From CBDUXP01 sp965371225 [NCBI: uncultured bacterium] (GTDB lineage: Bacteria > Abyssobacteria > SURF-5 > CBDUXP01): a DNA stretch of 64,000 nt. The notes beneath the pieces are model-generated. The model was not told the origin of the DNA and made no database searches. It saw only the letters and a list, made by a program, of their open reading frames with translations. Positions 6,742-23,843 of the stretch are shown in pieces; positions within the stretch are counted from its first letter, which is position 1; each line of letters opens with the position of its first letter. The position numbers and the translations under genes are program-made. The stretch is from positions 1 to 64,000 of the forward strand of contig CBDUXP010000018.1 in NCBI GenBank assembly GCA_965371225.1. Direction: 5' to 3'.

Positions 6742-8160
6742 ATGGCCACCGCCGCGGCCACCTCCCCACCCTGCGCTCCGCCGGCGCAGCGCATCCTGGT
6801 CATCGAGGATGAGACCAGCATGTGCGAACTGCTCGGCATCCTGCTGCAGAAGGATGGCTACGAGGTGGAGAGTGCCTCCACCCTGCAGGAAGCGGAGCCG
6901 CTCCTGACCGACGGGGTCTGGGACCTGGTGGTCACGGATCTCTGGCTCGATCAAGTCAAGGACGGCGGCATTCGCGTGTTGCGGCGGCTGCAGGAAGTGT
7001 CGCCGGGAACGCCCACGTTGGTCATCACGGCGCATGGGTCGGTGAACTCCGCGATCGACGCCATGAAGCTCGGCGCGTTCGACTACCTCATCAAGCCGTT
7101 CAACAACGATGAACTCCGCCTCATGGTCCAGAAGGCACTGGAGCAAAGCGCCCTCAGGCGGGAGAATCGTCAGCTCGCGAATCAGCTCCGCCGCATCAAC
7201 GACCTCGACAACATCATCGGCAACAGTGCGGCTATGCTCGAGGTGAAGGACATGATCCGGCGCGTGGGCGCGCTCAGCTCCACCGTGCTCATCCTGGGCG
7301 AGAGCGGCACGGGGAAAGAGCTGGTCGCCCGTGCGATTCACGGCTGCAGTCCGCGGACGGGCAACGCGTTTCTCAGCATCAACTGCGGGGGGCTGCCGGA
7401 TTCCCTGCTCGAGAGTGAACTGTTTGGCCACGCCAAAGGGTCGTTCACCGGCGCGGTCACCGACAAGGTGGGCATGTTCCAGGCGGCCCATAGCGGCACC
7501 CTCTTTCTGGATGAGATTGGCGAAACGAGCCCGCCCCTGCAGGTGAAACTCCTGCGCACCCTCTCGGAGATGATGATCCGCCCGGTGGGCACGAACGAAG
7601 AGATTCGGGTCGACGTGCGCCTGATCAGCGCCACCAACCGCGACCTGGATCACATGGTGGAGACGGGAGAGTTCCGCGAGGATTTCTTCTACCGCCTGAA
7701 CGTCATCCCTATCCAACTGCCGCCCCTGCGCGAGCGGCGGGACGATATCCCCCTGCTCGCGCACCATTTCGTCCACCGGTACTCCGCGCGCCTGGCCAAG
7801 CCGGTGGAGGGCCTCGCGGAGGACGCCCTGGACGCGCTGACGCAGTACCAGTGGCCGGGGAACATCCGCGAGTTTGAAAACATCATCGAGCGCACCATCG
7901 CCCTGTGCAACGGTCCGACCATTACGGCGGACGACCTGCCGGGCCACCTGACGCGGCCGGCGGTGCTGGGCGGCCGCCGGGAAACCGACCTGCCGCCCGA
8001 AGGCATCGATCTGGAACACAAGGTTGCCCAGTTTGAACGGTCCCTGTTGGCGCAAGCGCTGACGATGGCGAACCAGTCACAAGTGAATGCGGCGAAACTG
8101 TTGGGCCTCAGTCCGCGGTCGCTGCGCTACAAGCTGGAAAAGTACAGCATGAAGCCCTAG
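6742..8160 (+). CDS. pilR: Sigma-54-dependent response regulator PilR
   Basis: 472 residues, NtrC-class enhancer-binding protein. The receiver domain has the acidic pocket IEDE, the phospho-acceptor Asp in VVTDLWLD and the Lys in YLIKPF. The AAA+ domain has Walker A GESGTGKE near 186-193, the sigma-54-contacting GAFTGA loop present as GSFTGA, Walker B GTLFLDEIGE and the R finger region FREDFFYRLNVIPI. A Fis-type HTH closes the protein (QVNAAKLLGLSPRSLRYKLEK). It should activate sigma-54 promoters, and three such sites lie downstream in this cluster, before both pilins and pilM. The ATG follows the pilS stop by one base. The open frame upstream of 6742 is an overlap with pilS and is not used. 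Confidence 0.94.
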   Translation: MATAAATSPPCAPPAQRILVIEDETSMCELLGILLQKDGYEVESASTLQEAEPLLTDGVWDLVVTDLWLDQVKDGGIRVLRRLQEVSPGTPTLVITAHGSVNSAIDAMKLGAFDYLIKPFNNDELRLMVQKALEQSALRRENRQLANQLRRINDLDNIIGNSAAMLEVKDMIRRVGALSSTVLILGESGTGKELVARAIHGCSPRTGNAFLSINCGGLPDSLLESELFGHAKGSFTGAVTDKVGMFQAAHSGTLFLDEIGETSPPLQVKLLRTLSEMMIRPVGTNEEIRVDVRLISATNRDLDHMVETGEFREDFFYRLNVIPIQLPPLRERRDDIPLLAHHFVHRYSARLAKPVEGLAEDALDALTQYQWPGNIREFENIIERTIALCNGPTITADDLPGHLTRPAVLGGRRETDLPPEGIDLEHKVAQFERSLLAQALTMANQSQVNAAKLLGLSPRSLRYKLEKYSMKP

Positions 8161-8185: not shown

Positions 8186-9409
8186 ATGTCGACGTACAAA
8201 TACACCGCCCGCACCCGGGACGGGAAAAGCCAATCCGGCACCGTCGACGCCGATAGTCGCCAGGCCGTGCTTGCGAAAATCCGCGGCATGGGGCTGGTGC
8301 CCGTCTCCATCAATGAGGCCGCCGGAGCGCGCAAGGGCGCCGGACAGACCATCAAGCCGCGCAAGCGCGGCGCCAAGGTGCGGTCGGAAGACATGATCCT
8401 GTTCACGCGCTCACTCTCCACCATGGTGAACGCCGGCCTGCCGCTGATTCAGGGGATCGACATCCTGATCGAGCAGACCGACAGCCTGACCTTCAAGGGC
8501 ACTCTCACCGCCGTGGGCCACGACATCGAGGGCGGCCTCACCTTCTCCGAAGCGCTCGGCAAGCACCCGCGGGCGTTCAACGACCTCTATTGCAGCATGG
8601 CGCGCGCCGGGGAAGCGTCGGGGAGCTTGGACATCATCCTCGTCCGGCTCGCGGAGTACCTGGAAGCGACCGAGCAGTTGCGGCGCGAGATCAAGTCCGC
8701 CATGACCTATCCGGTCATCGCGATGGTTATCGTGGTCCTCATCGCGACGGGTTTGCTGGTGTTCATCGTGCCGTCCTTCGAAGAGATCTTCACCAGCCTG
8801 GGCGGTGAGCTGCCGGGGCCCACGAAGGTACTCATCCGTGCCAGCGAATTGATCCGCGAATATATGGTGCTCTTGGTCATGGGCATGGTGGCTTTTTATT
8901 TCGCGATGCGCTGGTACATCAGCCGGCCCTTCGGCCGCTACCAGTGGGACGCCGTGATGCTCCACCTGCCGGTGTTCGGCGCCCTGTTCCGCAAGGTGGC
9001 GGTGAGCCGGTTCGCGCGCACCCTGGCCACGCTCACGCAGTCCGGCGTGCCGGTGTTGGCGGCGTTGGAAATCTGCGAACGCACCACAGGGAATGAAGTG
9101 GTGAGTAAGGTCGTCCACGCCAGTCAAGAAAGCATCAAAGCCGGCGCCACCATCGCCGAACCCCTGTCGCACGGCGGCATCTTCCCGCCCATGGTTATTC
9201 GGATGATCGAGGTGGGCGAGCGGACCGGCGCGCTCGATACGATGCTCACGAAGGTGGCGGACTTCTACGATCAGCAGGTGGAGGCGACGGTCCGGCAACT
9301 CACGTCCCTCATCGAGCCTATGCTGATCGTTTTCCTCGGTGTCATCGTGGGTGGCATGGTTATTGCCCTCTTCCTTCCCATCTTCAAGATGTCGAGCCTC
9401 ATGTCATAG
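8186..9409 (+). CDS. pilC: Type IV pilus inner-membrane platform protein PilC
   Basis: 407 residues, standard PilC/GspF length. PilC is the inner-membrane platform on which PilB and PilT act. The N-terminus (YKYTARTRDGKSQSGTVDADS) is typical of PilC. Two GspF domains follow, each beginning with a cytoplasmic helical bundle (ILFTRSLSTMVNAGLPLIQG; RFARTLATLTQSGVPVLAAL), with transmembrane helices near 170-190, 222-240 and 375-400. A clear GGAGG at 8176-8180 lies five bases before the ATG. It follows pilR by 25 bp, and the sugar epimerase gene starts 10 bp after its stop, so the glycosylation genes appear to be in the same transcript. Confidence 0.96.
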   Translation: MSTYKYTARTRDGKSQSGTVDADSRQAVLAKIRGMGLVPVSINEAAGARKGAGQTIKPRKRGAKVRSEDMILFTRSLSTMVNAGLPLIQGIDILIEQTDSLTFKGTLTAVGHDIEGGLTFSEALGKHPRAFNDLYCSMARAGEASGSLDIILVRLAEYLEATEQLRREIKSAMTYPVIAMVIVVLIATGLLVFIVPSFEEIFTSLGGELPGPTKVLIRASELIREYMVLLVMGMVAFYFAMRWYISRPFGRYQWDAVMLHLPVFGALFRKVAVSRFARTLATLTQSGVPVLAALEICERTTGNEVVSKVVHASQESIKAGATIAEPLSHGGIFPPMVIRMIEVGERTGALDTMLTKVADFYDQQVEATVRQLTSLIEPMLIVFLGVIVGGMVIALFLPIFKMSSLMS

Positions 9410-9419: not shown

Positions 9420-10421
9420 ATGGCCTTGACTGGACAGACCATCTTTCTCACCGGCGGCGCCGGCTTCATCGGCACCGGCCTCATCCGGCGGTTGATCGAT
9501 CACAATCGCATCGTGGTGTACGACAACGGGCACCGCGACGCCTTGCAATCGTCCGGGCTCCGGGACCATGAGCACCTGCGGTTCGTCCGCGGCGACGTGC
9601 TGAATTACGGGCACCTCCGGGAGGCGATTCTTGCCGAACCGCCGGACTACGTGGTGCACTTGGCGGCGATTGCGGGGGTCGATACGGTGCTGCGCGTGCC
9701 GGTCCGGACCATGAAGATCAACATCCTCGGCACGTTCCACGTGCTCGAGGCGATCCTCGGCCTCGGCCAGCCGCTGAAGCGCTTCGTGGACTTCTCCACG
9801 TCCGAGGTCTTCGGCACGCACGTGTACCACGCCGAAGAGGTCTCCGCCACCACGGTGGGGCGCGTCGGCGAGGCGCGGTGGACCTATGCCGTGAGCAAGC
9901 TGGCCGCCGAACACTTGACGCACAACTACGGCAAGGAATTCGGCCTGCCCGCCGTCTCCGTGCGTCCGTTCAACGTGTTCGGCCCCGGCCAAGTCGGCGT
10001 CGGGGCCATTCATACCTTCATCGTGCGCGCCTTGCAGGGGCAGCCGCTCCAGATTCATGGCGACGGCAACCAGATTCGTGCCTGGTGCTACATCGATGAC
10101 ATGGTCGACGGGGTGCTGCGCACGATGGAGACGGAAGCCGCCTCCGGGCAGGTGTTCAACATCGGCAATCCGCGGAACACCGTCACCATCGCCACGCTGG
10201 CGGAGAAGGTGAAGGCGATCACCCAGTCCCAGTCGGAGATCGTGTACGTGGAGAAGGATTACGTGGACGTGGAGCTGCGCATCCCGAGCATCGACAAGGC
10301 GCAGACCATTCTGGACTTCCGGCCGCAGGTGGACCTGACCGAGGGGCTGCGGCGCACCGCCGCCTGGTACCGCGACCAACTGGCCCAGTCCGGGGCCGCC
10401 GCCGCCGCCGTCAGCATATGA
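9420..10421 (+). CDS. NAD-dependent nucleotide-sugar epimerase/dehydratase (extended SDR)
   Basis: 333 residues. The Rossmann fingerprint GGAGFIG is at 12-18 and the catalytic YxxxK (YAVSK) at Tyr156/Lys160; a Ser/Thr-rich active-site strand (DFSTSEV) precedes it. These define an extended short-chain dehydrogenase acting on a nucleotide-sugar, as in UDP-glucose 4-epimerase or dTDP-glucose dehydratase enzymes. The precise substrate cannot be read. The start at 9420 is favoured because the Rossmann strand begins within ten residues. The gene lies 10 bp after pilC and overlaps the next gene by 4 bp (ATGA), linking it to the acyltransferase, GT2 and TMEM260-like genes as the probable sugar-precursor step of a glycosylation pathway. 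Confidence 0.88.
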   Translation: MALTGQTIFLTGGAGFIGTGLIRRLIDHNRIVVYDNGHRDALQSSGLRDHEHLRFVRGDVLNYGHLREAILAEPPDYVVHLAAIAGVDTVLRVPVRTMKINILGTFHVLEAILGLGQPLKRFVDFSTSEVFGTHVYHAEEVSATTVGRVGEARWTYAVSKLAAEHLTHNYGKEFGLPAVSVRPFNVFGPGQVGVGAIHTFIVRALQGQPLQIHGDGNQIRAWCYIDDMVDGVLRTMETEAASGQVFNIGNPRNTVTIATLAEKVKAITQSQSEIVYVEKDYVDVELRIPSIDKAQTILDFRPQVDLTEGLRRTAAWYRDQLAQSGAAAAAVSI

Positions 10422-10951
10422 CCCTGGCGGCGCACTCCCACGGCACAGGGCAGTGGGCGCCGCAGGAGCTGGCTCTGCTGGGCGATGACGTCACCATCGA
10501 GCCCGGCGTCCTCATCTTCCATCCCGAGCACGTGGAGATCGGCCGGCAGGTGTACATCGGGCACCAGACGATCCTCAAGGCGTATCACGTGAAGCGCATG
10601 GTGATCGGTGCGCGGTCCTGGATCGGCCAGCAGTGTTTCTTTCACAGCGCCGGCGGCCTCACCATCGAGGAGTGCGTCGGCATCGGTCCCGGCGTCAAGA
10701 TTCTGACCAGCACCCATGCGGGCCAGCCGGTCGAGGCCGACATCATGGATACGGAATTAGAGTTCGCGCCCGTCCACATCGGCGCGGGGACGGACATCGG
10801 AGTGAGCGCCGTCATTTTGCCCGGAGTCACGATCGGCCGCCGCGTCCAGGTGGGCGCCGGCGCCGTCGTGGCCACCTCCCTCCCCGACTACGCGGTCGCC
10901 GCAGGCGTGCCCGCGCGCGTCCTGCGCGACCGCCGGGGGACCGCCCCGTGA
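10418..10951 (+). CDS. Hexapeptide-repeat (left-handed beta-helix) acyltransferase
   Basis: 177 residues made almost entirely of hexapeptide turns (for example VTIEPGVLIF, VEIGRQVYIG, IGVSAVILPG, VTIGRRVQVG), ending in the common PDYAVAAGVPARVLR tail of the LbetaH acetyltransferase family (WbbJ/LacA-like). Such enzymes usually transfer an acetyl group from acetyl-CoA to a sugar as a trimer. The start overlaps the epimerase stop and its own stop overlaps the next GTG start, so three enzymes are translationally coupled. A plausible role is acetylation of the sugar made by the epimerase; the acceptor is unknown. Confidence 0.85.
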   Translation: MTLAAHSHGTGQWAPQELALLGDDVTIEPGVLIFHPEHVEIGRQVYIGHQTILKAYHVKRMVIGARSWIGQQCFFHSAGGLTIEECVGIGPGVKILTSTHAGQPVEADIMDTELEFAPVHIGAGTDIGVSAVILPGVTIGRRVQVGAGAVVATSLPDYAVAAGVPARVLRDRRGTAP

Positions 10952-11685
10952 GCGCGCCGTATCTCAGCGTGGTCGTGCCCGCGTACAACGAAGAGGTGAA
11001 CCTGCCGAACACGGTGCACGCGGTCGCCGCCAAGCTCGAGGAGTTGGACGTCACGTACGAGATCATCATTGTCGATGACGGCAGCACCGACGCCACCCCG
11101 GAGCGCGCGCGGGATCTCGCCGCCGCGAATCCCCGGATCCGCCTCGAACGCCACCCGGAGAATCGCGGGCCGGGCAGCGGGGTGTTCACCGGGATCGAGT
11201 TGGCCGAGGGCGACTTCGTGATGTTCATCCCGGCGGACCTCGCGCTCGACCTGGACCACCTGTACAAGTACCTCGACGCAGCCCGCACGGCGGATCTCGT
11301 CGTCGGCTTGCGCAGCGATCGCCGCGACTACTCGTTCCCGCGCAAGATCGTCAGCTACACGAACATATTCTTGATCCGCACGCTGTTCGGCATGAAACAA
11401 CGGCAGTTCAACTACATTCACTGCTACCGGCGGACGCTGCTGCAACAGCTGAACATCGAGTCGCGCGGCGTGTTCATCACGGCGGAGATCATGATCAAGG
11501 CGAACGATCTCGGCTACCGCCTCGTGGAAGTGGAAATCCCGTATGTGCCCCGCGTGGCCGGCGTCGCCACCTGTGGCAGGGCCGCCGTGATCCTCCAGAC
11601 CGTGCGCGACCTGCTGCGCTTGTGGCTCCGCCGCACCCTCCTCCGCCGCCGCTACCGGCACGGCCTCGCCCGAGCAGCCACATGA
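10948..11685 (+). CDS. GT2 glycosyltransferase, polyprenyl-phosphate sugar synthase-like
   Basis: 245 residues, GT-A fold family 2. Nucleotide-binding strand LSVVVPAYNEE, DDGSTD at 43-48 and a PADLALD metal-site region near 95-101 resemble DPM1/ArnC-type enzymes that load a sugar from a nucleotide donor onto polyprenyl phosphate. It lacks the C-terminal transmembrane helices of ArnC, ending instead in a very Arg-rich helix (LLRLWLRRTLLRRRYRHG) that could bind membrane surface. The start is a GTG overlapping the preceding stop, and its stop overlaps the next ATG. Immediately upstream of three GT-C-like membrane proteins, it is positioned to supply their lipid-linked sugar donor (inference). 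Confidence 0.85.
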   Translation: MSAPYLSVVVPAYNEEVNLPNTVHAVAAKLEELDVTYEIIIVDDGSTDATPERARDLAAANPRIRLERHPENRGPGSGVFTGIELAEGDFVMFIPADLALDLDHLYKYLDAARTADLVVGLRSDRRDYSFPRKIVSYTNIFLIRTLFGMKQRQFNYIHCYRRTLLQQLNIESRGVFITAEIMIKANDLGYRLVEVEIPYVPRVAGVATCGRAAVILQTVRDLLRLWLRRTLLRRRYRHGLARAAT

Positions 11686-14063
11686 CGGCCGCCGCGGTGC
11701 AGGCGCGCCCGCCCGCCGCGGACCTCACTTTTCATCGCTGGATGGGCTGGGCCGTCGGGCTCGGTGCGTTCGCCCTGTACACGGCCACGTGCTGCCCCAC
11801 CGTGCATTGGGGGGATAGCGGCGAGCTGATTGTGGCCGGCGTCGTGCTGGGCATCGCCCACCCACCCGGCCATCCCCTGTTTTCGATGCTCGGGCACCTG
11901 TTCAGTTGGCTGCCCCTCGCCACGCCCGCGTGGCGCGTGAACTGGATGTCCGCCGTGTTCGGCGCCGTCGCCGTCGGCCTCACGTACGAACTCGCGGCGG
12001 AGACCCTGCGCCGGTTGGGGGCGCCGCCCCGCCGGGCCGCCGGGTGCGCCGCCGCGGCCGCCGCCCTGTTCGCCGTCACCTCCGGCCTCTGGGGGGGGAG
12101 CACGGTCGCGGAGACCACCGCGCTCCACGCCGCGTTCACGGCGGGCGTGGTCTGGCTCGTCTGGCGCATTGCGTGGACGCGACCGACGGGCGCCACGCTG
12201 ACGCAAGCATTGGGGGCCGCCGCCGTGCTGTACGGTTTCAGCGCCACCAACCACGTGGCGGGCATCTTCTTTCTACCGGCCTTCGCCGTCCTGCTGGTCG
12301 CCCGGTGCGGCCGCGAAGTCCTCCATCCCCGCAACGTGTGCGTCATGGTCGCGTGCGTGCTGGCCGGGCTGTCCCTGTACGGGTTCCTGCCGCTGCGGTC
12401 GCTGCAGAACCCTCCGCTGGATTGGGCGAATCCCGAGACGGCCAAAAATTTCTGGTGGGTCATCACCGCGCGCCAGTACCAGGCCTACATGACCCAATCG
12501 CCCGCCGGCTTCGTCGCCGCGTCCCAGGCACTCGGGCAGCGCGGCGTCCTCATCGCCCAGGAGTGGACCGGGGTGGGCGCGGTGCTGGTCATTGCGGGCG
12601 TGCTGAGCCTCGGGCGCCGTGTCCCGGCGTTCGCCGCGTTCGTGCTGCTGGCCGTGGCCCCCCTCATCGTCCTGGGGCTCAGCTCCGCGTTCATCCTCGC
12701 GTACGTCGTCCCCGGCATGGTGCTGCTCGCGGTCGCGCTCGCGGTCGGCTTCGAGCGCGTGGTCGGTGCGACGCCCGTGCTGCCGGCCCCGGTGGCCGCG
12801 GCGCTGGCGGCGGCGCTCGTGGCCTGGAGTGGCGTCCAGCACGCCGGGGCCAGCGCGCGCCAGACCGACCGGACGGCGGACGCCTACGGCCGGACGCTGC
12901 TCGCGGAATTGCCCGCGAACGCGGTGCTGTTCTCGACGAACCAGCCTATGCTCTTCGTGTCCTGGTTCCTGCAGCTGACCGAGGGCTACCGCACCGATGT
13001 GAGCGTGGTGGACCCGCGGTGGTTGGTGGATGCCACGCCGCTCACCGAACAGGTGCGGCAGGCCCATCCGGACCTCCGGGCGCTGACGCGGGACGAGCTG
13101 GAGGGCTACCGGCAGGCGTGGGGGGCGGAGACGCTCTCCCACGACGTGGTCATCGCGGCGGTCATGGCGGCGAACCGTGGCCCGCGCCCCATTTACACCG
13201 GCGTCTTCGACCATGCGACGGAGATGCGGCGGCACTTGGCGCCCCGCGGCGGGCTGCTGGAGTTGCGGGACGCGCCCGGACCGTACTTGGACGCGGCGAC
13301 GGTGGGCCGCTCCCAGGCCTACTGGCTGGATTGGGAGGCGCGCCTGGCGGCGGATGCGGACCTGCGCCGCCCCGAACTGCAGGAAATGATCGCCCACGAA
13401 GTGAACAACCAGGGGCTCTTCTTCGAAAGCCTGGACCGCGACGATCTCGCACGGTGGAACTACCGGACGGCGGCGCGGCTGGCGCCCCACGTGGCGGAGC
13501 CGCACCTCAATCGCGGTCGCCTCGCTGCCGATACGGAAGACTGGGCCGGCGCCGAAGTGGCGTATCGCACCGCGACGACCCTGCAGCCGGAGAATTCCCG
13601 CGCGCACTACTACCTGGGCACCGCCCTGGAAGGGCTGGACCGGTTCGCGGACGCCTACCGTGCCTACCTGCTGGCCATGACCTGGGATCCCAACGACGGC
13701 GATGCCCTCCGCCGCGCCGGCCTGCTGCTGTTGCGCGCTGGGGATGTGGCGCAAGCGGAATCCCTGCTGGCGTGGGCGCTCAACGCAAATCCGGATGACG
13801 CCGCCTCGGCCCAGGGGCTGGTGCGCGTGGCGTTCGCGCGGAACGAACTCCCGGCCGCCGGTGAGGCGTTGCAGCGCGCGCAAGCGTTGGATCCGGACAG
13901 CGTGCACGCACTCCTGCTGACGGCGGAGTATGGCGCCCGGACCGGTCAGACCACTGCGCGCCAGGCCCTGGACGAGGCGTTCCGGATCGATCCGGCATAC
14001 GCGGCAGAGGCGACGGTCGACGCTCCCTGGGCGCAACCGCTGCTGGAGCCGGTGGGGCCGTAA
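11682..14063 (+). CDS. TMEM260-like (DUF2723) membrane protein with C-terminal TPRs, copy 1
   Basis: 793 residues. The N-terminal half is a polytopic membrane domain of the DUF2723/TMEM260 family, a GT-C-type fold; eukaryotic TMEM260 is a protein O-mannosyltransferase. The family signature is visible in the first external loop: TVHWGDSGELIVAG and IAHPPGHPLFSMLGHL, with the acidic DSGE pair at the position expected for catalysis. About 10 hydrophobic helices extend to about residue 390. A periplasmic region follows with TPR-like repeats from about 560 to 780 (AEPHLNRGRLAADTEDWAGAEVAYR, SRAHYYLGTALEGLDRFADAYRAY). The ATG overlaps the GT2 stop. It is the first of three tandem paralogues; the acceptor protein is unknown. 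Confidence 0.85.
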   Translation: MTAAAVQARPPAADLTFHRWMGWAVGLGAFALYTATCCPTVHWGDSGELIVAGVVLGIAHPPGHPLFSMLGHLFSWLPLATPAWRVNWMSAVFGAVAVGLTYELAAETLRRLGAPPRRAAGCAAAAAALFAVTSGLWGGSTVAETTALHAAFTAGVVWLVWRIAWTRPTGATLTQALGAAAVLYGFSATNHVAGIFFLPAFAVLLVARCGREVLHPRNVCVMVACVLAGLSLYGFLPLRSLQNPPLDWANPETAKNFWWVITARQYQAYMTQSPAGFVAASQALGQRGVLIAQEWTGVGAVLVIAGVLSLGRRVPAFAAFVLLAVAPLIVLGLSSAFILAYVVPGMVLLAVALAVGFERVVGATPVLPAPVAAALAAALVAWSGVQHAGASARQTDRTADAYGRTLLAELPANAVLFSTNQPMLFVSWFLQLTEGYRTDVSVVDPRWLVDATPLTEQVRQAHPDLRALTRDELEGYRQAWGAETLSHDVVIAAVMAANRGPRPIYTGVFDHATEMRRHLAPRGGLLELRDAPGPYLDAATVGRSQAYWLDWEARLAADADLRRPELQEMIAHEVNNQGLFFESLDRDDLARWNYRTAARLAPHVAEPHLNRGRLAADTEDWAGAEVAYRTATTLQPENSRAHYYLGTALEGLDRFADAYRAYLLAMTWDPNDGDALRRAGLLLLRAGDVAQAESLLAWALNANPDDAASAQGLVRVAFARNELPAAGEALQRAQALDPDSVHALLLTAEYGARTGQTTARQALDEAFRIDPAYAAEATVDAPWAQPLLEPVGP

Positions 14064-14064
14064 C

Positions 14065-16431
14065 GTGTCGCGCGCGTTCCCGACTTCCCCGACCACGCGG
14101 GCGGCCTGCGGGCTCGGCTTCGCGGCGCTCGTGCTCTACACGATCACCTGCTGCCGCACGGTGCATTGGGGCGACAGCGGCGAGCTGATCGCCGCCGGGG
14201 TCGGCCTCGGCATCGCGCACCCGCCCGGCCATCCGCTGTACTCCATGATCGCGCACCTGTTCACGTGGCTGCCCGTCGGCGGCCTCGCGTGGCGGGTCAA
14301 CTGGATGTCGGCGGTCTTCGGCGCCGCCGCGGTGGGCCTGACCGTCCCTTTCGCGACCGAGACGGTGCGGCGCCTGGGCGCTTCGCCGGCGCAGGCGCTG
14401 GGCTGTGGTATCGCGAGCGCCGCCGCGTTCGCCGTGACGGCTGGGTTGTGGAGTGGCAGCACCGTCGCGGAGACCACCACGTTGCACGCGGCGTTCATGG
14501 TCGCCATGTTCGCCCTCGTCTGGCGCATCGCGTGGACCCAGCCGGCGGGCCGCACGCTCACGCAGGCCCTGGGTGCCGCGGCGGCGCTCTACGGGTTCAG
14601 TGCCACCAATCACGTGGCGGGCGTGTTCTTCCTCCCGGCGTTCGCGTCCCTGCTCATCGGCCGGTGCGGGCGGGAGGTTCTGCGGCCCAAGAACGTGGCG
14701 GTCATGGTCGCGTGCGTGCTGGCGGGCGCCATGCTGTACGGCTATCTTCCCCTGCGCTCGCTGCAGGAGCCCCTGCTGGATTGGGGCAATCCGGAAACGC
14801 CGGCCAACTTCTGGTGGGTCGTCAGCGTGAAAGAGTTTCAGAGCACCATCGTGGAGCCGGTCAGTGCCGCGGGGGCGTGGGCGGCCCTCGCCGACCGTGG
14901 GCGGTACATCGTGGGCGAATTCACCCCCCCGGGGAGTCTCCTGGTGGTCGTGGGCCTCTTCGTGCTGGCACGGCGCGCCCCGTGGTTCGCTGCGAGTTTG
15001 CTGCTGGCCGCGGCCCCGCTGATCCTGTTGGGCTTGAGTGCCGCGTTCATCTTGGCGTACTTCGTGCCCGGCGCGTTGCTGCTCTGCATCGCCCTTGGGG
15101 TGGGGTGCCATGCGGTGCTCGAGATGGCGCCGCGCCTGCCCCGGATGGTGGCCGCCGCCGCCGCCCTCGGGATGGTGACCTGGAGCGGCACCGGGCACTA
15201 CGCCGAGGCCGCGACGCAAAACGACCGGGGCGCCGAACTCTACGCGCGCATGCTGCTGGACCCGCTGCCCGAGGACGCCGTGCTGTTCGCGACGAACATG
15301 AACATGGTGTTCACCACCTGGGCGCTGCAAGCGACGCAGGACTACCGCCGCGACGTGGCGGTCATCCCGTGGTATTGGACGGCGGGCGACTCGCCCCTCA
15401 CCGCGGAACTGACGCGGGACTACCCGGATCTGACGTTCCTGTCCATGGCGGAGCTGGAGCCGTTCCGCACGCGGTTCGGCGTGCGCGAGCTGACGCCGGA
15501 CGTGGGGTTTGCGGCGGTGGTGGAATCCAATCTGGACCGGCGGCCGCTCTTCGTCGGACCGCCGGCGAATCCCACGCGCGTGGGGGAACACCTCGTGCCC
15601 CGTGGCGGAGTGTTCGAAATTCAGCGCACCGCCGGTGCCCCGGTCAGTGAGGCGAGCATCGCGAGCGTCCGCGCCTACTGGGGACGGTGGATGGCGTACG
15701 TGGACGACGACCCGCACTTGAGCGAACGGCCGCTGCAACTGGCGCTGGCCAACGATTTGAACAACCAGGCCCTGTGGTTCGAGCGGCGCGGACACCCGCA
15801 GGTGGCGCGGTGGGAGTACTCCGCGGCGGTCCGGCTCGCGCCCCGGCAGGTGGCCCCCTACTTGAACCGCGGTCGCCTGGCCAGTGAGGCGGACAACTGG
15901 CCGGCCGCCCTGGCCGAGTACCGCATGGCCGTCAACCTGGAGCCGCGAAACGCGGCCGCGCTCGTGCACCTGGGCATGGCGGAAGATGCGCTCGGCCGGC
16001 CGGAGCGCGCCTACGAGGCGTACATGGAAGCCCTGCTGTGGGCGCCGCGCCACGCGCGCGCCCTCCGCCGCGCCGGAATGCTCATGCTGCGAGCGGGGGA
16101 GCTGGAGCGCGCAGAATCCCTGCTCACCCGCGCACTCGCCGCTGCACCCGAGGATGGCGTTGCCGCGCGCGGATTGGTGCGGGTCGCCCTGGCCGCCGGC
16201 GATAACCGGGGCGCCATCCCGGCGCTGCGCCGGGCGCGGCAGGTGGATCCGGACAGCATTCATCTCCTGTTGCTCACGGCGGAGTACGCGGCGCGGACGG
16301 GGCAGCGGAACGTCGCGGCCGACTCGCTGGCCGCCGCGTACCAGCGCGACCCCCAGACCACCGCCGGGGTGACCGCGGCTGCGGATTGGGCGCACGACCT
16401 GCTGCCGGCTGCGGCCGCGGGGGAGGGCTGA
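14065..16431 (+). CDS. TMEM260-like (DUF2723) membrane protein with C-terminal TPRs, copy 2
   Basis: 788 residues, same architecture as its neighbours: loop signature TVHWGDSGELIAAG with IAHPPGHPLYSMIAHL, a multi-helix membrane half, then TPR-like units (VAPYLNRGRLASEADNWPAALAEYR). The chosen GTG at 14065 follows the stop of copy 1 by one base. It places the first helix (CGLGFAALVLYTITCC) near residue 15, as in copies 1 and 3; the open frame upstream overlaps copy 1. Stretches such as the FSATNHVAG(I/V)FFLPAF segment are nearly identical to copy 1, so the array arose by tandem duplication. Expected role: inner-membrane transfer of a sugar from a lipid carrier to exported proteins (inference from the TMEM260 family). 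Confidence 0.85.
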   Translation: MSRAFPTSPTTRAACGLGFAALVLYTITCCRTVHWGDSGELIAAGVGLGIAHPPGHPLYSMIAHLFTWLPVGGLAWRVNWMSAVFGAAAVGLTVPFATETVRRLGASPAQALGCGIASAAAFAVTAGLWSGSTVAETTTLHAAFMVAMFALVWRIAWTQPAGRTLTQALGAAAALYGFSATNHVAGVFFLPAFASLLIGRCGREVLRPKNVAVMVACVLAGAMLYGYLPLRSLQEPLLDWGNPETPANFWWVVSVKEFQSTIVEPVSAAGAWAALADRGRYIVGEFTPPGSLLVVVGLFVLARRAPWFAASLLLAAAPLILLGLSAAFILAYFVPGALLLCIALGVGCHAVLEMAPRLPRMVAAAAALGMVTWSGTGHYAEAATQNDRGAELYARMLLDPLPEDAVLFATNMNMVFTTWALQATQDYRRDVAVIPWYWTAGDSPLTAELTRDYPDLTFLSMAELEPFRTRFGVRELTPDVGFAAVVESNLDRRPLFVGPPANPTRVGEHLVPRGGVFEIQRTAGAPVSEASIASVRAYWGRWMAYVDDDPHLSERPLQLALANDLNNQALWFERRGHPQVARWEYSAAVRLAPRQVAPYLNRGRLASEADNWPAALAEYRMAVNLEPRNAAALVHLGMAEDALGRPERAYEAYMEALLWAPRHARALRRAGMLMLRAGELERAESLLTRALAAAPEDGVAARGLVRVALAAGDNRGAIPALRRARQVDPDSIHLLLLTAEYAARTGQRNVAADSLAAAYQRDPQTTAGVTAAADWAHDLLPAAAAGEG

Positions 16432-16436
16432 GCCGC

Positions 16437-18896
16437 ATGGAGGCCATCACGCCCACCGATGCCCTGCACCGCGCGCTGCGCTGGTGCCTCGGCCTCGGCA
16501 CGCTGGCGCTCTATACGTTCACGTGCTGCCGGACGGTGCACTGGGCGGACAGCGGGGAACTCATCTTCGCCGGAGCGGTGCTGGGCATCGCCCATCCGCC
16601 GGGGCACCCGCTGTACTCGATGCTGGCGCACCTGTTCAGTTGGCTGCCCATCGGCCCGGTGGCGTTCCGCATCAATTGGATGTCCGCGGTGTTCGGTGCG
16701 GTGGCCGTGGTGCTGTCGTACGAAGTGGCGGCGGAAACGCTTCGCCGCCTGGGGACACCGCCGCGGCGCGCGACCGGGGTGGCGGCGTTTGCGGCGCTGG
16801 TGTTCGGCTTGACGGTCGGCTTGTGGGGCGGCAGCACGGTGGCGGAGACCACCACCCTGCACGCGGCGCTGCTGGCGGGCCTGTTCTGGCTGGTGTGGCG
16901 CATCGCGTGGGTGCAGCCGACGGGCCCCGCCCTGACGCAGGCGCTGGGCGCGGCCGCGGCGCTCTACGGCTTTGGCGCCACGAATCACGTGGCCGGCATC
17001 CTGTTCCTGCCGGCGCTGGCGGTGCTGCTGGTGAGCCGGTGCGGGCGCGAGGTCCTGGCGCCCAAAAACCTGGTGGTGATGTTCGCCTGCGTAGGCTTGG
17101 GGCTCAGCCTCTACGCGTTCCTCTACCTGCGTTCGCATCAGAACCCGGCCTTAGACTGGGGCAACCCGGAAACCCTGTCGAATCTCTGGTGGGTCGTGTC
17201 CGCGAAGCAATTCCAGGGGGGGATGGCGCGGAGCGCTGCGGGAGCGGGCGCCTGGCAGGCCCTGGCCAACCGCGGCGCCGTCCTGGTCGGGGAATGGACG
17301 CCGGTGGGGGCTGGGCTGGTGGTGGTGGGGCTGTTGGGGCTGGCGCGGCGCGCCCCCTGGCTCGCGCTGTTCACGCTCCTGTGTCTCGTGCCGCTGGTGG
17401 TGTTGGGGTTGAAGTCCGCCTTCATCCTCGCGTATTTCGTCCCCGGTCTGTTGTTGATGACCGTGGCGCTCGCGGTCGGCTGCGACGTCCTCCTGCGGCG
17501 GATGCCGCGGGTGCCCGTATGGGCGACCTGTGCTGCCGCCCTGTGCCTGCCGGCCTGGAGCGCCAGGGCCCACTACGGGGACGCCGCGCTCCAGGACGAT
17601 TACTCCGCTGAGGTCTACGGCCGCACGGTGCTCGAACACCTGGACCCGAACAGCGCCTTCATCACCACGTCGGGGGATCAGGCGTTCATCTTCTGGGCGC
17701 TGCAATCGGCTGCGGGCCATCGCACGGACGTGGCGGTGATCAACCCCACGTGGGGCGCGACGGATACGCCGACCCGCGAATCGCTCGAAGAACAGTATCC
17801 CGACATGCGCTTCCTGCGATCGGACGACCTGGCCCCATACGAAGCACGGTGGGGCCTCCCGCGCAGCTCCGTGGACCTGCGCATCGCGGCATTGCTCGAT
17901 GCCAACGCGGGGCGGCGACCGCTCTTCATGAGCATGCCGGTGAACGACACAGTCTTGTACGAGCACCTGGAACTGCGGGGCGCGGTGCTGCGGTACCGGG
18001 AGCAACGCGGCCAGTACCTGACGGACGCGGCCATCGAGCAGGCGCGCACGTACTGGGACGGGTGGTTTGTCCTCTTGGCCGACCGCCCCGCGCTCGGGAC
18101 GGATTACCTGGTCGAGGCGCTGGGCAACGACCTGAACAACCAGGGCAAGTTCTTCGAGGGGGCGGGGCGCGAGGACTTGGCCCTCTGGAATTTCGACACC
18201 GCGATCCACATGAACCCCCGGATGGTGGTGGCGCGGCTGAATCGGGGCCGGCTGTACGGTCGCCACGGCGATTGGCCGCGGGCGCTGCGGGATTTCGAGG
18301 CGGCGGTGGGGCTGGACCCGCGGCACCCGGCGGCCCAGTACTTCCGGGGGGTCGCGCTGGAATCCACGGGGCAGTTGGAAGACGCCTACCGGGCCTATCT
18401 GGAGACCCTGCTCTGGGAGCCCGCGGATGGGGATGCCCTCCGGCAGGTGGGTTTGCTGCTGCTGCGGACCGCTGAGACGGACCGCGCCGCCGAGTATCTG
18501 CGCCGGGCGCTGGCCGCCAATCCCGAGGACCGGGCCGCGGCCCAGGGGCTGTTGCAGGTGCTGCTAGCGGTTCCGGGCGCAATGGACACCCAGGTTGCGG
18601 TGTCAGACGACCGGGCGGCCCCGACCCCCGCGGCGGCGGCGGAACGGGTGACGCGGCAGGCGCTGGCGGGCGCTGATTACCCGCGCGCGGCAGCGGGCTT
18701 GCAATGCCTCCAGGCACTCCGACCGCCGGACGTGCACCTGTTGCTGTTGCTGGCGGAATACGCGGCGCGAACGGAGCAACGAGACGCGGGAAGCATCTTG
18801 GCCCAGGCCTTTGCACGGGATGCGGCGGCAACCCAGACGGTGGTGGCGACTCAAGACTGGGCCTCGGCCCTGGCCCGAACGGAGCCGCTGCGTTGA
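16437..18896 (+). CDS. TMEM260-like (DUF2723) membrane protein with C-terminal TPRs, copy 3
   Basis: 819 residues. Signature TVHWADSGELIFAG, differing from copies 1 and 2 by Gly to Ala before the DSGE, and IAHPPGHPLYSMLAHL are present. The membrane half is followed by TPR-like units (VVARLNRGRLYGRHGDWPRALRDFE). Its C-terminal TPR region carries an extra insert around residues 700-735 (AMDTQVAVSDDRAAPTPAAAA) not seen in the other copies. The GGAGGG at 16422-16427 sits nine bases before the ATG at 16437. The gene is the last before the pilins; the following 269 bp carry a sigma-54 promoter, so the long pilB-to-TMEM260 transcript probably ends near here. Confidence 0.85.
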   Translation: MEAITPTDALHRALRWCLGLGTLALYTFTCCRTVHWADSGELIFAGAVLGIAHPPGHPLYSMLAHLFSWLPIGPVAFRINWMSAVFGAVAVVLSYEVAAETLRRLGTPPRRATGVAAFAALVFGLTVGLWGGSTVAETTTLHAALLAGLFWLVWRIAWVQPTGPALTQALGAAAALYGFGATNHVAGILFLPALAVLLVSRCGREVLAPKNLVVMFACVGLGLSLYAFLYLRSHQNPALDWGNPETLSNLWWVVSAKQFQGGMARSAAGAGAWQALANRGAVLVGEWTPVGAGLVVVGLLGLARRAPWLALFTLLCLVPLVVLGLKSAFILAYFVPGLLLMTVALAVGCDVLLRRMPRVPVWATCAAALCLPAWSARAHYGDAALQDDYSAEVYGRTVLEHLDPNSAFITTSGDQAFIFWALQSAAGHRTDVAVINPTWGATDTPTRESLEEQYPDMRFLRSDDLAPYEARWGLPRSSVDLRIAALLDANAGRRPLFMSMPVNDTVLYEHLELRGAVLRYREQRGQYLTDAAIEQARTYWDGWFVLLADRPALGTDYLVEALGNDLNNQGKFFEGAGREDLALWNFDTAIHMNPRMVVARLNRGRLYGRHGDWPRALRDFEAAVGLDPRHPAAQYFRGVALESTGQLEDAYRAYLETLLWEPADGDALRQVGLLLLRTAETDRAAEYLRRALAANPEDRAAAQGLLQVLLAVPGAMDTQVAVSDDRAAPTPAAAAERVTRQALAGADYPRAAAGLQCLQALRPPDVHLLLLLAEYAARTEQRDAGSILAQAFARDAAATQTVVATQDWASALARTEPLR

Positions 18897-19165: not shown

Positions 19166-19651
19166 ATGCGGTCGACAAAGGGATTCACACTGATTGAACT
19201 CATGATCGTGGTGGCGATCATCGCCATCATCGCGGCGATAGCCATTCCGAACCTCCAACGCTCGCGGGTGGCGGCGAACGAGGCCAGTGCGGTGAGCCTG
19301 CTGCGCACGCTGCACTCAGGGGAGAGCACGTTCAAGCTGAGCACCAGCGCGGATGCGAACAACAACGGCATCGGGGAGTACGGCACGTTCGCCGGTCTGA
19401 CCAACGGTGCCCCGCCGTGGTTGGATCCGACCTATGGTTCCGGAACGCGGGGCGGCTATCAGTTTCAATTGACCTTGCCCGGCAACGTGAACCTGGCCGA
19501 GAACCAGTGGGATGCATCGGCCGCGCCCATAAGCTGGGGCCAGACGGGCGTGCGCACTTTCTACATCGATGAGAGCGGCGTCCTGCGCGCACAGGACAAC
19601 GGGGGACTCCTCGTGAATCGGGCCACCGGCCAGACCTACATCCCGCTCTAG
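19166..19651 (+). CDS. pilA: Type IVa major pilin-like prepilin, copy 1
   Basis: 161 residues. A six-residue basic leader MRSTKG is followed by the prepilin peptidase site and the mature N-terminus FTLIELM with Glu5, then the long hydrophobic alpha1-N helix ending in AIPNL. The mature subunit would be about 155 residues. It has no cysteines, so the C-terminal disulfide loop of Pseudomonas pilins is absent. The C-terminal region has a GVRTFYIDESGVLRAQDNGG strand block shared with copy 2. AGGGAG at 19153-19158 precedes the ATG. It has its own sigma-54 promoter. Whether this or copy 2 is the main fibre subunit cannot be decided. Confidence 0.93.
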   Translation: MRSTKGFTLIELMIVVAIIAIIAAIAIPNLQRSRVAANEASAVSLLRTLHSGESTFKLSTSADANNNGIGEYGTFAGLTNGAPPWLDPTYGSGTRGGYQFQLTLPGNVNLAENQWDASAAPISWGQTGVRTFYIDESGVLRAQDNGGLLVNRATGQTYIPL

Positions 19652-19788: not shown

Positions 19789-19804
19789 TGGCATGGGGCT
19801 TGCG
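19789..19804 (+). promoter_or_regulatory. Sigma-54 (-24/-12) promoter before pilin gene 2
   Basis: TGGCATG-GGGC-TTGCG, a close match to TGGCACG-N4-TTGCW with correct spacing. The predicted start is near 19815, about 79 nt before the pilin ATG. Together with the sites at 19082 and 21355 it supports a PilR/sigma-54 pilus regulon. Confidence 0.7.
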
Positions 19805-19893: not shown

Positions 19894-20394
19894 ATGATGC
19901 GAAGCAACAAGGGTTTCACCCTGATCGAACTGATGATCGTGGTAGCGATCATCGCGATCATCGCCGCCATCGCCATCCCGAACTTGCTGCGGGCGCGCGT
20001 TGCGGCCAACGAGTCGGCCGCCATCGGCGCGCTGCGGACCCTGTCCACCGCCGAAGCGACCGCCCAGCAGTCGAACGTCTGGGATCCGGACGCCGACGGC
20101 GTCGGCGCCTACCTGGCGCTGTTTGACCTCGGGAACACGGTGTACCAGCCGCCGTTCATCGATACCGCCCTCGCCGGTGGTGCGAAGTCCGGTTACCAGT
20201 TCGCCACGACCACGTACGCGGGCCTGTCCAGCGAAGTGCAGTGGGATGCCTACGGCAGCCCCCTCGCTTACGGGACGTCCGGTGTGCGGAGCTTCTACGT
20301 GGACGAGACCGGCGTGGTCCGTGGTCGCGACACGGGTGGCAATGCCGCCGTGGCGCGTGCCGCCGGTTCCACCTGGTTGCCCGTTGGGAACTAG
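19894..20394 (+). CDS. pilA: Type IVa major pilin-like prepilin, copy 2
   Basis: 166 residues. The leader MMRSNKG precedes FTLIELM with Glu5, and the N-terminal helix is essentially identical to copy 1, diverging after AIPNL. The mature chain is about 159 residues and has no cysteines. The C-terminal block GVRSFYVDETGVVRGRDTGG parallels copy 1, so the genes are paralogues. ATG codons exist at 19894 and 19897; GGAG at 19880-19883 favours the first, and both give a valid leader peptide. Its own sigma-54 promoter suggests independent expression, perhaps as the dominant pilin or as an alternative subunit. Confidence 0.93.
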   Translation: MMRSNKGFTLIELMIVVAIIAIIAAIAIPNLLRARVAANESAAIGALRTLSTAEATAQQSNVWDPDADGVGAYLALFDLGNTVYQPPFIDTALAGGAKSGYQFATTTYAGLSSEVQWDAYGSPLAYGTSGVRSFYVDETGVVRGRDTGGNAAVARAAGSTWLPVGN

Positions 20395-21454: not shown

Positions 21455-22609
21455 ATGTTCTCCAAACCCCGCAAGACTATCGGCATCGACATCGGCACCC
21501 ACTCCGTGAAGATCGTGCAGTTCGGCCCTGGCAGCCGGCCGCGGTTGGAGAAGGCGACGTTGACGATGGTCGATCCCGCCCTGTTCCAGCAGGACGCCCC
21601 CGCGGCGCTGGAAGCCGCCCTGCGCGAGGCGCTCGGCTTCTACCTGGCGCGGAGCGCCGTGGTGGTGGGCTCCCTCAGCGGACAGGACACGATCATCCGC
21701 TATCTGCGCATGCCCAAGATGCCCTCGGAGGACTTGCACGCCGCCATCGAGAACGAGGCGGACCAGAACATTCCCTTCGACCTGGCCGAAGTGGTGTTGG
21801 ACTACGACATCGTCGAGGAGCAGGTGGAGGGCGATGACACGACCTTGCGCGTGCTGCTGGTGGCCGCCAAGAACGAAATCATTGACGAGCGGGTCGACTT
21901 GTTCCGAACGGTCAACGTGCAACCCCATGTGCTGAGCGTGAACACGCTGGCCCTGGCGGACTCGTGCGATGCGAATGGGCAGTTCCGGGAGAATGAGACC
22001 GTCGCCCTGGTGAACATCGGGGCCCAGACGACGAACATCCATTTCTGCCGCGACGGCGTCAGCAATTTCACGCGCGACATCGCCCGGGGCGGCCGGGAAC
22101 TCACCAACGCCATTCAGAAGTTCTACAAGGTGAGCTACGACGAGGCCGAAGCCCTGAAGACGGAACCCCGGCTGGATGACGGCTTCCAGGAAAGCCCCCC
22201 GGACGCGTCCACCCCGGGCCTCAGCGCCACGGATACGGACGGCGCGGGGCACTATACGGGGACGGGCACGGACCCGGATCTGACGGGGGGCGAGCACGCG
22301 AAATTCGCCAACGCGACCCGCCCGGTCATCAGCCGGCTCATCGGCGAGATCAAGCGGTCCATCGATTTCTACGAACGGCAGCTGTATGAGCGGCCCGTGG
22401 AGCGGATCGTCCTCAGCGGCGGTACGGCGGGCTTTCCCGGGCTCGACCAGCAGATGGCGGATGCCTGCGGCGTGCCGGTCGAGATTGCGGATCCGCTCGA
22501 GGCGCTGCAAGTGAACGAGCGGTCGCCGGACGTCCAGGACGCGTTGAACCACCGCGAGAAGTTTGCGGTCGCCGTGGGCTTGGCCGCACGGGGGATGGAA
22601 CTCGTATGA
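21455..22609 (+). CDS. pilM: Type IV pilus assembly actin-like ATPase PilM
   Basis: 384 residues. PilM is a cytoplasmic FtsA/actin-like protein that binds the N-terminus of PilN and connects the motor to the inner-membrane alignment complex. The N-terminal phosphate-1 motif TIGIDIGTHSVKIVQF, the phosphate-2-like segment TVALVNIGAQTTNIHF and the adenosine region RIVLSGGTAGFPGL are visible. A polar insert at about 245-275 (SPPDASTPGLSATDTDGAGHYTGTG) is unusually long and is probably a flexible loop. GCGAGGG precedes the ATG by about eight bases, and the stop overlaps pilN by 4 bp. Confidence 0.95.
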   Translation: MFSKPRKTIGIDIGTHSVKIVQFGPGSRPRLEKATLTMVDPALFQQDAPAALEAALREALGFYLARSAVVVGSLSGQDTIIRYLRMPKMPSEDLHAAIENEADQNIPFDLAEVVLDYDIVEEQVEGDDTTLRVLLVAAKNEIIDERVDLFRTVNVQPHVLSVNTLALADSCDANGQFRENETVALVNIGAQTTNIHFCRDGVSNFTRDIARGGRELTNAIQKFYKVSYDEAEALKTEPRLDDGFQESPPDASTPGLSATDTDGAGHYTGTGTDPDLTGGEHAKFANATRPVISRLIGEIKRSIDFYERQLYERPVERIVLSGGTAGFPGLDQQMADACGVPVEIADPLEALQVNERSPDVQDALNHREKFAVAVGLAARGMELV

Positions 22610-23259: not shown

Positions 23260-23266
23260 GGGCACC

Positions 23267-23842: not shown

Positions 23843-23843
23843 G

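What the first reader, a model, noticed from the sequence alone, without database searches (positions are those of the whole stretch)
9420..18896. Putative pilus-coupled protein O-glycosylation island
A nucleotide-sugar epimerase, a hexapeptide acyltransferase, a DPM1-like GT2 and three tandem TMEM260-like proteins form one overlapping gene chain between pilC and the pilins. TMEM260 is a known protein O-mannosyltransferase. The set could make, load and transfer a lipid-linked sugar to pilins or other exported proteins, a pathway not described for type IV pili to my knowledge.
Basis: inference. Interest (0 to 1): 0.8.

Follow-up and report, generated by a model that had tools for sequence, protein, structure and literature searches.

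The report
Pilus-linked TMEM260-type sugar transferase operon
Inside the gene cluster for a bacterial pilus sit genes that probably build a sugar and attach it to the pilus protein, using relatives of a human enzyme that decorates cell-surface receptors; similar enzyme genes sit beside pilus genes in some other bacteria.

Summary
9420-18896 holds SDR, hexapeptide acyltransferase, GT2 and three tandem TMEM260-like genes, overlapping or 1-10 bp apart, between pilC and two pilins. The order is kept in the 3 genomes held for the phylum of Candidatus Abyssobacteria SURF_17, one of them split over two contigs. The TMEM260-like proteins match human TMEM260 by sequence (E 7e-47); T1 is predicted as a GT-C enzyme plus TPR domain. 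TMEM260-like genes also sit beside type IV pilin genes elsewhere: 7 of 99 surveyed loci within 1.5 kb, and 8 of 18 hit genomes in another phylum, G012 counted in both. Best reading: the cassette makes a polyprenyl-phosphate sugar and the TMEM260-like enzymes put it on pilins in the periplasm. Sugar, carrier and acceptor are inferred. What looks new is the enzyme family. Against: 90 of 99 surveyed TMEM260-like loci show no pilin signal.

The parts
2219..4009 (+). pilB, extension ATPase (context)
   Evidence: T2SSE 1.3e-141 plus MshEN; 64.7% identical in L001
4045..5109 (+). pilT, retraction ATPase (context)
   Evidence: T2SSE 1.3e-48; 67.5% identical in L001
5106..6740 (+). pilS, sensor kinase (context)
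   Evidence: 6TM_PilS, HisKA, HATPase_c
6742..8160 (+). pilR, sigma-54 activator (context)
   Evidence: Response_reg, Sigma54_activat, HTH_8
8186..9409 (+). pilC, platform protein (upstream border)
   Evidence: PF00482 2.3e-59
9352..9367 (+). sigma-54-like -24/-12 site ending 53 bp before the SDR start (suggestive only)
   Evidence: one of 2 sites with at most 1 mismatch to the looser consensus on the + strand of the window; consensus recalled; lies inside pilC
9420..10421 (+). SDR, UDP-sugar oxidoreductase/decarboxylase-like
   Evidence: PF01370 1e-53; best PDB chain 8vr2 5.3e-105, titled Pcryo_0617 oxidoreductase/decarboxylase
10418..10951 (+). hexapeptide-repeat acyltransferase
   Evidence: PF00132 1.6e-13; nearest PDB galactoside/maltose O-acetyltransferases 2e-15 and 1.8e-14
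10948..11685 (+). GT2, candidate polyprenyl-phosphate sugar synthase, no transmembrane helix by hydropathy
   Evidence: PF00535 7.1e-30; PDB DPMS 5mlz 5.8e-15, ArnC 9hwj 6.4e-15; hydropathy
11682..14063 (+). T1, TMEM260-like GT-C enzyme with TPR domain
   Evidence: PF11028 7.8e-30; model pLDDT 89.7
14065..16431 (+). T2, TMEM260-like protein with TPR domain
   Evidence: PF11028 1.3e-27; 54% identical to T1
16437..18896 (+). T3, TMEM260-like protein with TPR domain
   Evidence: PF11028 1.5e-27; 52% identical to T1
19166..19651 (+). pilA1, type IV pilin, candidate acceptor
   Evidence: PF07963 3.7e-9
19789..19804 (+). sigma-54-like site before pilA2 (suggestive only)
   Evidence: 1 mismatch to the looser consensus
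19894..20394 (+). pilA2, type IV pilin, candidate acceptor
   Evidence: PF07963 3.3e-10
21455..27083 (+). pilM-pilN-pilO-pilP-pilQ (context); not found near the cassette in the relatives
   Evidence: PilM_2, PilN, PilO, Secretin; pilP has only weak T2SSC/T2SSB matches and is named by position; no pilM-Q match in L001, L065-L068

Best explanation
A pilus-dedicated O-glycosylation cassette. Step 1 (inferred): the SDR and the acyltransferase make an unusual UDP-sugar, perhaps an acylated pentose. Step 2 (inferred): the soluble GT2 loads that sugar on polyprenyl phosphate at the inner face of the membrane, and it is flipped by a protein not recognised here. Step 3 (family, T1 fold and predicted topology shown; reaction inferred): T1-T3, GT-C membrane enzymes with the conserved DSGE...HPPGHP stretch on a predicted periplasmic loop and a periplasmic TPR domain, move the sugar from the lipid to Ser/Thr of the membrane-anchored pilins before assembly. 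The three paralogues would serve different sites or pilins.
For: Same gene order pilB-T-S-R-C-SDR-hexapeptide-GT2-TMEM260s-pilin(s) in the 3 genomes of the SURF_17 phylum, G002 split over two contigs. A membrane-domain profile finds one distinct PDB sequence at E up to 0.1: human TMEM260, 6.9e-47, sharing DSGE and HPPG(H/Y)P. T1 model pLDDT 89.7 aligns with GT-C enzymes: yeast OST Z 25.2; Pmt1-Pmt2 Z 24.6, rmsd 4.2, 367 aligned; ArnT 24.4; PglB 23.9. The Asp of DSGE is invariant in 12 of 12 and 13 of 13 aligned proteins. The D45 loop has no Lys/Arg. Pilins beside TMEM260-like genes in other genomes: L100 pilin-T-GT2, L102, L106, L108, L245, L246, and 8 of 18 hit genomes of G012's phylum. L246 is a second sugar-gene cassette: DegT-WbqC-SDR-GT2-T-GT2-T-pilin-T-PMT_2 (WbqC recalled, not scanned). 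Sigma-54-like sites precede pilT in 3 of 3 relatives and all 5 of their pilins seen.
Against: No biochemical data. The fold does not tell the acceptor: lipid- or glycan-acting GT-C enzymes score alike or in the same range (ALG12 24.6, ArnT 24.4, AftB 20.5). GT2 keeps only the second Asp of the DAD motif (PADLALD in 4 of 4). The SDR occurs outside pil loci at up to 60% identity (15 of 18 hit genomes are not in the SURF_17 phylum), and with a hexapeptide partner but no T gene in L279. 90 of 99 surveyed loci with a TMEM260-like gene showed no pilin signal, nor did the 23 new short loci of the best hits. No flippase was recognised among the window ORFs scanned. No acceptor site is predicted. G003 shows one pilin, not two, and pilM-Q were not found near the cassette in the relatives.
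Confidence: 0.6

Rival explanations
1. The cassette is a general or surface-protein O-glycosylation system that happens to be kept in the pil operon; pilins are not the main acceptors.
For: TMEM260-like genes are common without pil genes: 29 of 60 and 198 of 288 genomes carry one, and 90 of 99 surveyed loci lack a pilin signal; the 3 relatives also carry separate ones. Human TMEM260 acts on Ig-like IPT domains (PMC11292533, passages).
Against: Recurrent position directly beside pilins, and the cassette stays in the pil operon in 3 relatives.
Confidence: 0.2
2. The enzymes modify a lipid or polysaccharide (an ArnT-like role, or exopolysaccharide that pili bind) and are co-regulated with pili.
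For: ArnT and ALG12 are among the best structural matches (Z 24.4 and 24.6); the SDR matches ArnA decarboxylase and the GT2 matches ArnC, a set like the Arn pathway; SDR and hexapeptide occur together elsewhere.
Against: Sequence membership is TMEM260; no polymerase or Wzx-type gene was recognised among the cassette genes.
Confidence: 0.12
3. T1-T3 are pilus-assembly scaffolds: the TPR domain is the working part and the GT-C domain is relic.
For: TPR domain aligns with PilF over 218 of 222 residues (Z 18.6, rmsd 3.1) and with the NCBIfam PilW model below its cut-off (58 of 154 bits).
Against: DSGE/HPPGHP residues kept in all three copies; TPR matches are generic (MamA 21.0, OGT 20.6); conserved sugar genes sit next to them.
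Confidence: 0.05

Closest known systems
Human TMEM260 (CAZy GT117), protein O-mannosyltransferase
   Same: PF11028 GT-C domain, sequence match over residues 30-460 of 9rql, DSGE and HPPG stretches
   Different: Bacterial, in a pil operon, three tandem copies, C-terminal TPR shown here for the bacterial proteins only; sugar and acceptor unknown. Human substrates are IPT domains of plexins, cMET and RON (PMC11292533, passages)
TfpW of Pseudomonas aeruginosa group IV pilins
   Same: GT-C enzyme, a pilin accessory protein that glycosylates its associated pilin (PMC11841053, passages)
   Different: TfpW adds D-arabinofuranose; here the family is TMEM260 with TPR, with SDR/acyltransferase/GT2 genes in the operon. 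Sequence relation to TfpW was not tested
ArnA-ArnC-ArnT route
   Same: Decarboxylase-type SDR, GT2 and GT-C enzyme with the logic UDP-sugar, polyprenyl-P-sugar, transfer (matches; the logic is recalled)
   Different: ArnT modifies lipid A (recalled); the enzymes here belong to TMEM260 and sit with pilins
Pcryo_0617 oxidoreductase/decarboxylase, 8vr2
   Same: Window SDR is 50-51% identical in the Foldseek alignments, E 5.3e-105 by sequence, with the STSEVFG, YAVSK and ELRIP stretches shared
   Different: Source organism's O-antigen contains 2,3,4-triacetamido-2,3,4-trideoxy-L-arabinose (PMC8040287, passages); no aminotransferase in the window cassette
Human TMTC1-4 (GT105)
   Same: GT-C enzymes of protein O-mannosylation (PMC11292533, passages); GT-C plus TPR architecture recalled
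   Different: Different sequence family. A PMT_2+TPR protein does sit in a pilin locus with a TMEM260-like gene in L245

Membership tests
TMEM260 / GT117 | PF11028 domain above the curated cut-off | tested here: met
   104.4, 97.2, 97.0 bits against 24.2
TMEM260 / GT117 | GT-C fold | tested here: met
   T1 model; OST, Pmt1-Pmt2, ArnT, PglB at Z 24-25. T2 and T3 not modelled
TMEM260 / GT117 | Sequence relation to characterised TMEM260 | tested here: met
   9rql E 6.9e-47, the only distinct PDB sequence with E up to 0.1
TMEM260 / GT117 | Acidic residue on the first non-cytoplasmic loop | tested here: met
   D45 invariant; loop has 0 Lys/Arg. That it is catalytic is recalled for GT-C enzymes
TMEM260 / GT117 | Transfers a sugar from polyprenyl phosphate to Ser/Thr of protein | not testable with these tools
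   needs biochemistry
DPM1/ArnC-type polyprenyl-phosphate glycosyltransferase | GT2 domain most like DPMS/ArnC | tested here: met
   5mlz 5.8e-15, ArnC 6.4e-15; below the cut-off of all 25 NCBIfam models listed
DPM1/ArnC-type polyprenyl-phosphate glycosyltransferase | DAD metal-binding motif | tested here: inconclusive
   PADLALD in 4 of 4 orthologues; first Asp absent, second kept; PAD also occurs in other GT2 hits (L038-L041)
UDP-sugar oxidoreductase/decarboxylase (Pcryo_0617-like SDR) | Close sequence relation and shared catalytic stretches | tested here: met
UDP-sugar oxidoreductase/decarboxylase (Pcryo_0617-like SDR) | Decarboxylates a UDP-uronic acid | not testable with these tools
   the activity of 8vr2 itself was read only from its title; other list members are epimerases and dehydratases
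TfpW pilin arabinosyltransferase | GT-C gene close to the pilin gene | tested here: met
   T3 ends 269 bp before pilA1; fold
TfpW pilin arabinosyltransferase | Sequence homology to TfpW | not tested
   no TfpW sequence fetched
PglL/TfpO-type O-oligosaccharyltransferase | Wzy_C-type (PF04932, recalled) ligase domain | tested here: not met
   no such Pfam match at E up to 0.001 in the cassette proteins

The most novel reading that the evidence does not exclude
Bacterial TMEM260-like proteins, whose role I found in no paper searched, include a widespread class of pilin O-glycosyltransferases present in at least three phyla (those of G001, G012 and G059) and perhaps more. They would use a dedicated polyprenyl-phosphate sugar, possibly an acylated pentose, and would repeatedly expand in tandem to serve several sites. 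Animal receptor O-mannosylation by TMEM260 would then be a relative of a bacterial surface-fibre glycosylation system.
Probability: 0.35. Interest if true: 0.8.

Novelty: new variant of a known kind. Interest (0 to 1): 0.62.

Why it matters
TMEM260-like genes are common in some bacterial groups (29 of 60 and 198 of 288 genomes), but no paper listed by my searches (listings, and passages of one of those papers) assigns the bacterial ones a role. A repeated position beside type IV pilins gives a concrete, testable acceptor. If right, it adds another GT-C family, beside TfpW, to pilin glycosylation and links it to a human disease enzyme family. The predictions are direct: which pilin, which enzyme, which lipid-linked sugar.

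Tried and rejected
Viral scan with pilA2 found nothing. The best GT2 hits outside the SURF_17 phylum were tested for cassette gene order in 7 longer regions (L074-L080): none had T or pil genes; the extra neighbours were an SDR and a hexapeptide match in L076, a hexapeptide match in L079 and a weak SDR match in L080. Recent horizontal gain was rejected: GC3 of T1-T3 equals that of pil genes; their higher GC (0.70-0.72) comes from codon positions 1 and 2. Sigma-70-like promoters and terminators in 18600-21500: none above chance. Rfam on 1-31000: none. The second structure job (SDR) gave pLDDT 51.9, too low to use; its fold search served only to read the title of 8vr2. Human TMEM260 does not appear in the Foldseek/VIA rows shown, perhaps because of its release date; it was found by sequence only. 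Orthology T1=a, T2=b, T3=c was rejected by the tree. The exact sigma-54 pattern with Y-A-C found no site in the pil locus; the looser pattern gave the two sites quoted, without a chance estimate of its own.

Survey details. Of 67 match rows, 15 belong to G001-G003 (left out); 40 fetched regions cover 41 of the other 52 rows, the 11 left being among the weaker. A further 60 regions were taken down the list, skipping genomes already seen. Two regions of G182:C80 overlap (L241, L258). The profile included pilin-linked members, so its ranking may favour them. In the looser count the L206 hits lie next to a TPR protein that matches the T profile weakly and has no PF11028 match; the PF11028 gene of L206 is farther off. 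The strict count is the one to use.
Full report
WHAT IS THERE. The window carries a large type IV pilus locus on the + strand: pilB 2219, pilT 4045, pilS 5106, pilR 6742, pilC 8186, then the cassette, two pilins, and pilM-N-O-P-Q to 27083 (families; pilP is named by position, its matches are weak). The cassette is SDR 9420-10421, hexapeptide acyltransferase 10418-10951, GT2 10948-11685, T1 11682-14063, T2 14065-16431, T3 16437-18896. Adjacent cassette genes overlap by 4 bp or are 1-5 bp apart, and pilC ends 10 bp before the SDR, so co-transcription with pilC is likely (inference). T3 ends 269 bp before pilA1. GC3 resembles that of the pil genes.

CONSERVATION. Only one, L001 (Candidatus Abyssobacteria bacterium SURF_17), has pil genes in number, the cassette and pilins; two others (L008, L009) have only a PilR-like regulator beside the T gene, which may be any NtrC-type protein. 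In L001 the order runs from the end of the dnaA-like gene to two pilins, with three tandem T genes. The tool holds 3 genomes for that phylum (G001 = SURF_17; G002 and G003 unnamed; below 'the relatives'). G003 (L066+L065) has three T genes and one pilin; G002 (L067+L068) shows two T genes and two pilins on two contigs, whose adjacency is inferred. No pilM-Q match was found in these stretches, so the shared order covers dnaA-like to pilins only. Identities to the window: SDR 67-71%, GT2 64-68%, hexapeptide 58-61%, pilC about 65%, T proteins 27-38%. In 386 genomes given as relatives of G001, the GT2 has 3 matches at 64-68% identity, all in these pil loci; the next is 39% (80 of 386 genomes match at E 1e-25 or better). 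The SDR is spread wider: 18 of 372 genomes at E 1e-70 or better, the 3 relatives at 68-71%, the other 15 at 42-60%. The window's own genome is not held; its kinship to SURF_17 is inferred from this locus only.

INDEPENDENT TRIPLICATION. T1-T3 are 50-54% identical to each other and form one clade (100/100) that groups with the relatives' 'a' copies at 84/96, below the star threshold. The relatives' a, b and c copies form separate clades across genomes (c: three genomes, 100/100). So the window's lineage seems to have tripled its gene separately at the same place. Caveats: gene conversion could give the same picture, the window rows have a skewed composition, several deeper forks are open, and outgroup branches are long.

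WHAT THE T PROTEINS ARE. A profile of the membrane domain (6 sequences) finds one distinct PDB sequence at E up to 0.1: human TMEM260, 9rql, E 6.9e-47, with matching DSGEL and HPPG(H/Y)PL stretches. In an alignment of 12 family members W43, D45, E48 and HPPGHP are invariant; in another of 13 with more distant members W and D stay invariant, E and parts of HPPGHP do not. The AlphaFold model of T1 (12 sequences) has pLDDT 89.7, pTM 0.85. VIA-align places about residues 9-535 on GT-C enzymes: yeast OST Z 25.2, Pmt1-Pmt2 Z 24.6 (rmsd 4.2, 367 aligned), ALG12 24.6, ArnT 24.4, PglB 23.9, AftB 20.5. This mixes protein- and lipid- or glycan-acting enzymes, so the fold does not tell the acceptor. The C-terminal part falls on TPR proteins including PilF 2ho1 (Z 18.6, 218 of 222 aligned, rmsd 3.1), though MamA and OGT score higher. 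Eleven membrane helices, chosen by hand from the model, put the D45 loop (no Lys/Arg) and the TPR domain on the same, presumably periplasmic, side.

THE SUGAR. The SDR's best solved relative is 8vr2 (E 5.3e-105), titled 'Pcryo_0617 oxidoreductase/decarboxylase from Psychrobacter cryohalolentis K5' (read through a low-confidence model). The next chains, at E 1e-40 and weaker, are a mix: an epimerase-related protein, UDP-glucuronate decarboxylases, epimerases, dTDP-glucose dehydratases, ArnA; the best NCBIfam model is dTDP-glucose 4,6-dehydratase, far below its cut-off (178 of 365 bits). The organism's O-antigen holds 2,3,4-triacetamido-2,3,4-trideoxy-L-arabinose (PMC8040287, passages). A UDP-pentose-type product is therefore only my guess. 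The GT2 is nearest to DPMS 5mlz and ArnC 9hwj at almost equal scores, has no membrane helix by hydropathy and reads PADLALD where DAD is usual, in 4 of 4 orthologues. The acyltransferase is of the galactoside/maltose O-acetyltransferase kind. SDR and acyltransferase orthologues lie close together without GT2 or T genes in L279.

TMEM260 AND PILINS ELSEWHERE. I fetched 100 regions around TMEM260-like genes of other genomes and looked for the class III signal of pilins with a regular expression. Loose count: 11 pilin signals within 1.5 kb of a gene matching the T profile (290 kb) against 3 farther off (895 kb). Strict count (profile E below 1e-30; 99 loci): 9 signals in 7 loci near (281 kb), 5 signals in 2 loci far (921 kb); one-sided binomial on the 9 loci P = 9e-4. 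Limits: relatedness among loci is ignored, the second 60 regions come from a profile that included pilin-linked members, several regions are short contigs, and 90 of 99 loci had no pilin signal. Arrangements seen: pilin-T-GT2 (L100), pilin-T (L102, L108), pilR-T-lipoprotein-pilin-pilin-T-GT2 (L106, lipoprotein by eye, one unrelated ORF between the pilins), pilS-pilR-pilin-pilin tail to tail with T (L245), minor-pilin-like genes after T (L250). L246 is a second sugar cassette: DegT aminotransferase, WbqC-like (recalled), SDR, GT2, T, GT2, T, pilin, T, PMT_2. In the phylum of G012, 18 of 132 genomes have a relative of the pilin-linked T protein, and in 8 of these 18, G012 included, a pilin signal lies in the short fetched locus, often as pilR-T-pilin. 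In G059 a second, partial T copy (89% identical) lies about 4 kb from an SDR 59% identical to the window's. Controls: 27 short GT2 loci (L038-L064) and 7 long ones (L074-L080) gave no pilin signal; neither did the 23 new loci of the best TMEM260 hits (L121-L143). So the pilin link belongs to part of the family.

REGULATION (suggestive). Sites fitting a sigma-54 -24/-12 consensus (recalled) lie upstream of pilT in 3 of 3 relatives and upstream of the 5 pilins seen there; 5 other regions of the same genomes (L069-L073) had none. In the window two + strand sites have at most one mismatch: 9352, ending 53 bp before the SDR start but inside pilC, and 19789 before pilA2; none precedes pilT and the pilA1 site has two mismatches. 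A stricter pattern found none in the locus, with 1.23 chance matches expected in the window; the looser pattern has no chance estimate.

HOW IT PROBABLY WORKS. See Best explanation. Shown: gene content, order, conservation, family of T1-T3, predicted fold of T1, recurrent pilin linkage. Inferred: the sugar, lipid carrier, direction of transfer, acceptor. In human cells TMEM260 adds single O-mannose to beta-strands of Ig-like IPT domains (PMC11292533, passages); whether the bacterial enzymes act similarly on pilins is open.

COMPARISON AND NOVELTY. Pilin glycosylation by the GT-C enzyme TfpW with D-arabinofuranose is known in P. aeruginosa group IV strains, and TfpO is another route (PMC11841053, passages). 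The kind is therefore known; the enzyme family and the operon are new as far as my searches show. No paper in the library contains 'DUF2723', and searches for TMEM260, GT117 and pilin terms listed no bacterial study of this family (only the top rows were shown). The library lacks most subscription journals and all bioRxiv preprints.

VERDICT. Observation confirmed; interpretation partly supported and, on the pilus link, strengthened. Interest 0.62.

Noticed in passing
window 899-2212: Protein joining an MshEN domain to a DnaA-type ATPase domain just before pilB; kept at the same place in the 3 relatives at 50-60% identity, in L001 only its end is held.
   Followed up: partly
window 27226-30621: 1131-aa ORF after pilQ with an N-terminal MshEN domain (3.8e-16) and no other Pfam match.
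   Followed up: partly
window 20395-21454: About 1.06 kb between pilA2 and pilM without a recognisable gene; the ORF 20818-21441 has no NCBIfam match.
   Followed up: no
window 30662-33888: Two tandem outer-membrane efflux (TolC-like) genes behind the pilus locus.
   Followed up: no
L245:5567-7495 and L206:10013-11728: TPR proteins in pilS-pilR-pilin loci alongside a TMEM260-like gene; the L245 one has a PMT_2 match, reminiscent of animal TMTC proteins, the L206 one matches the T profile weakly without a GT-C family match.
   Followed up: partly
L106:7167-9266: Pilin-linked TMEM260-like protein in which DSGE reads DSAT, so the Glu is not universal.
   Followed up: no
L279:6867-9360: SDR (51%) and hexapeptide acyltransferase (54%) orthologues close together without GT2 or T genes.
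   Followed up: partly
L001:2071, 17277 and 18047: Sigma-54-like sites before pilT and before both pilins.
   Followed up: partly
L001, L065-L068: pilM-Q are next to the pilins in the window but not in the fetched stretches of the three relatives.
   Followed up: partly
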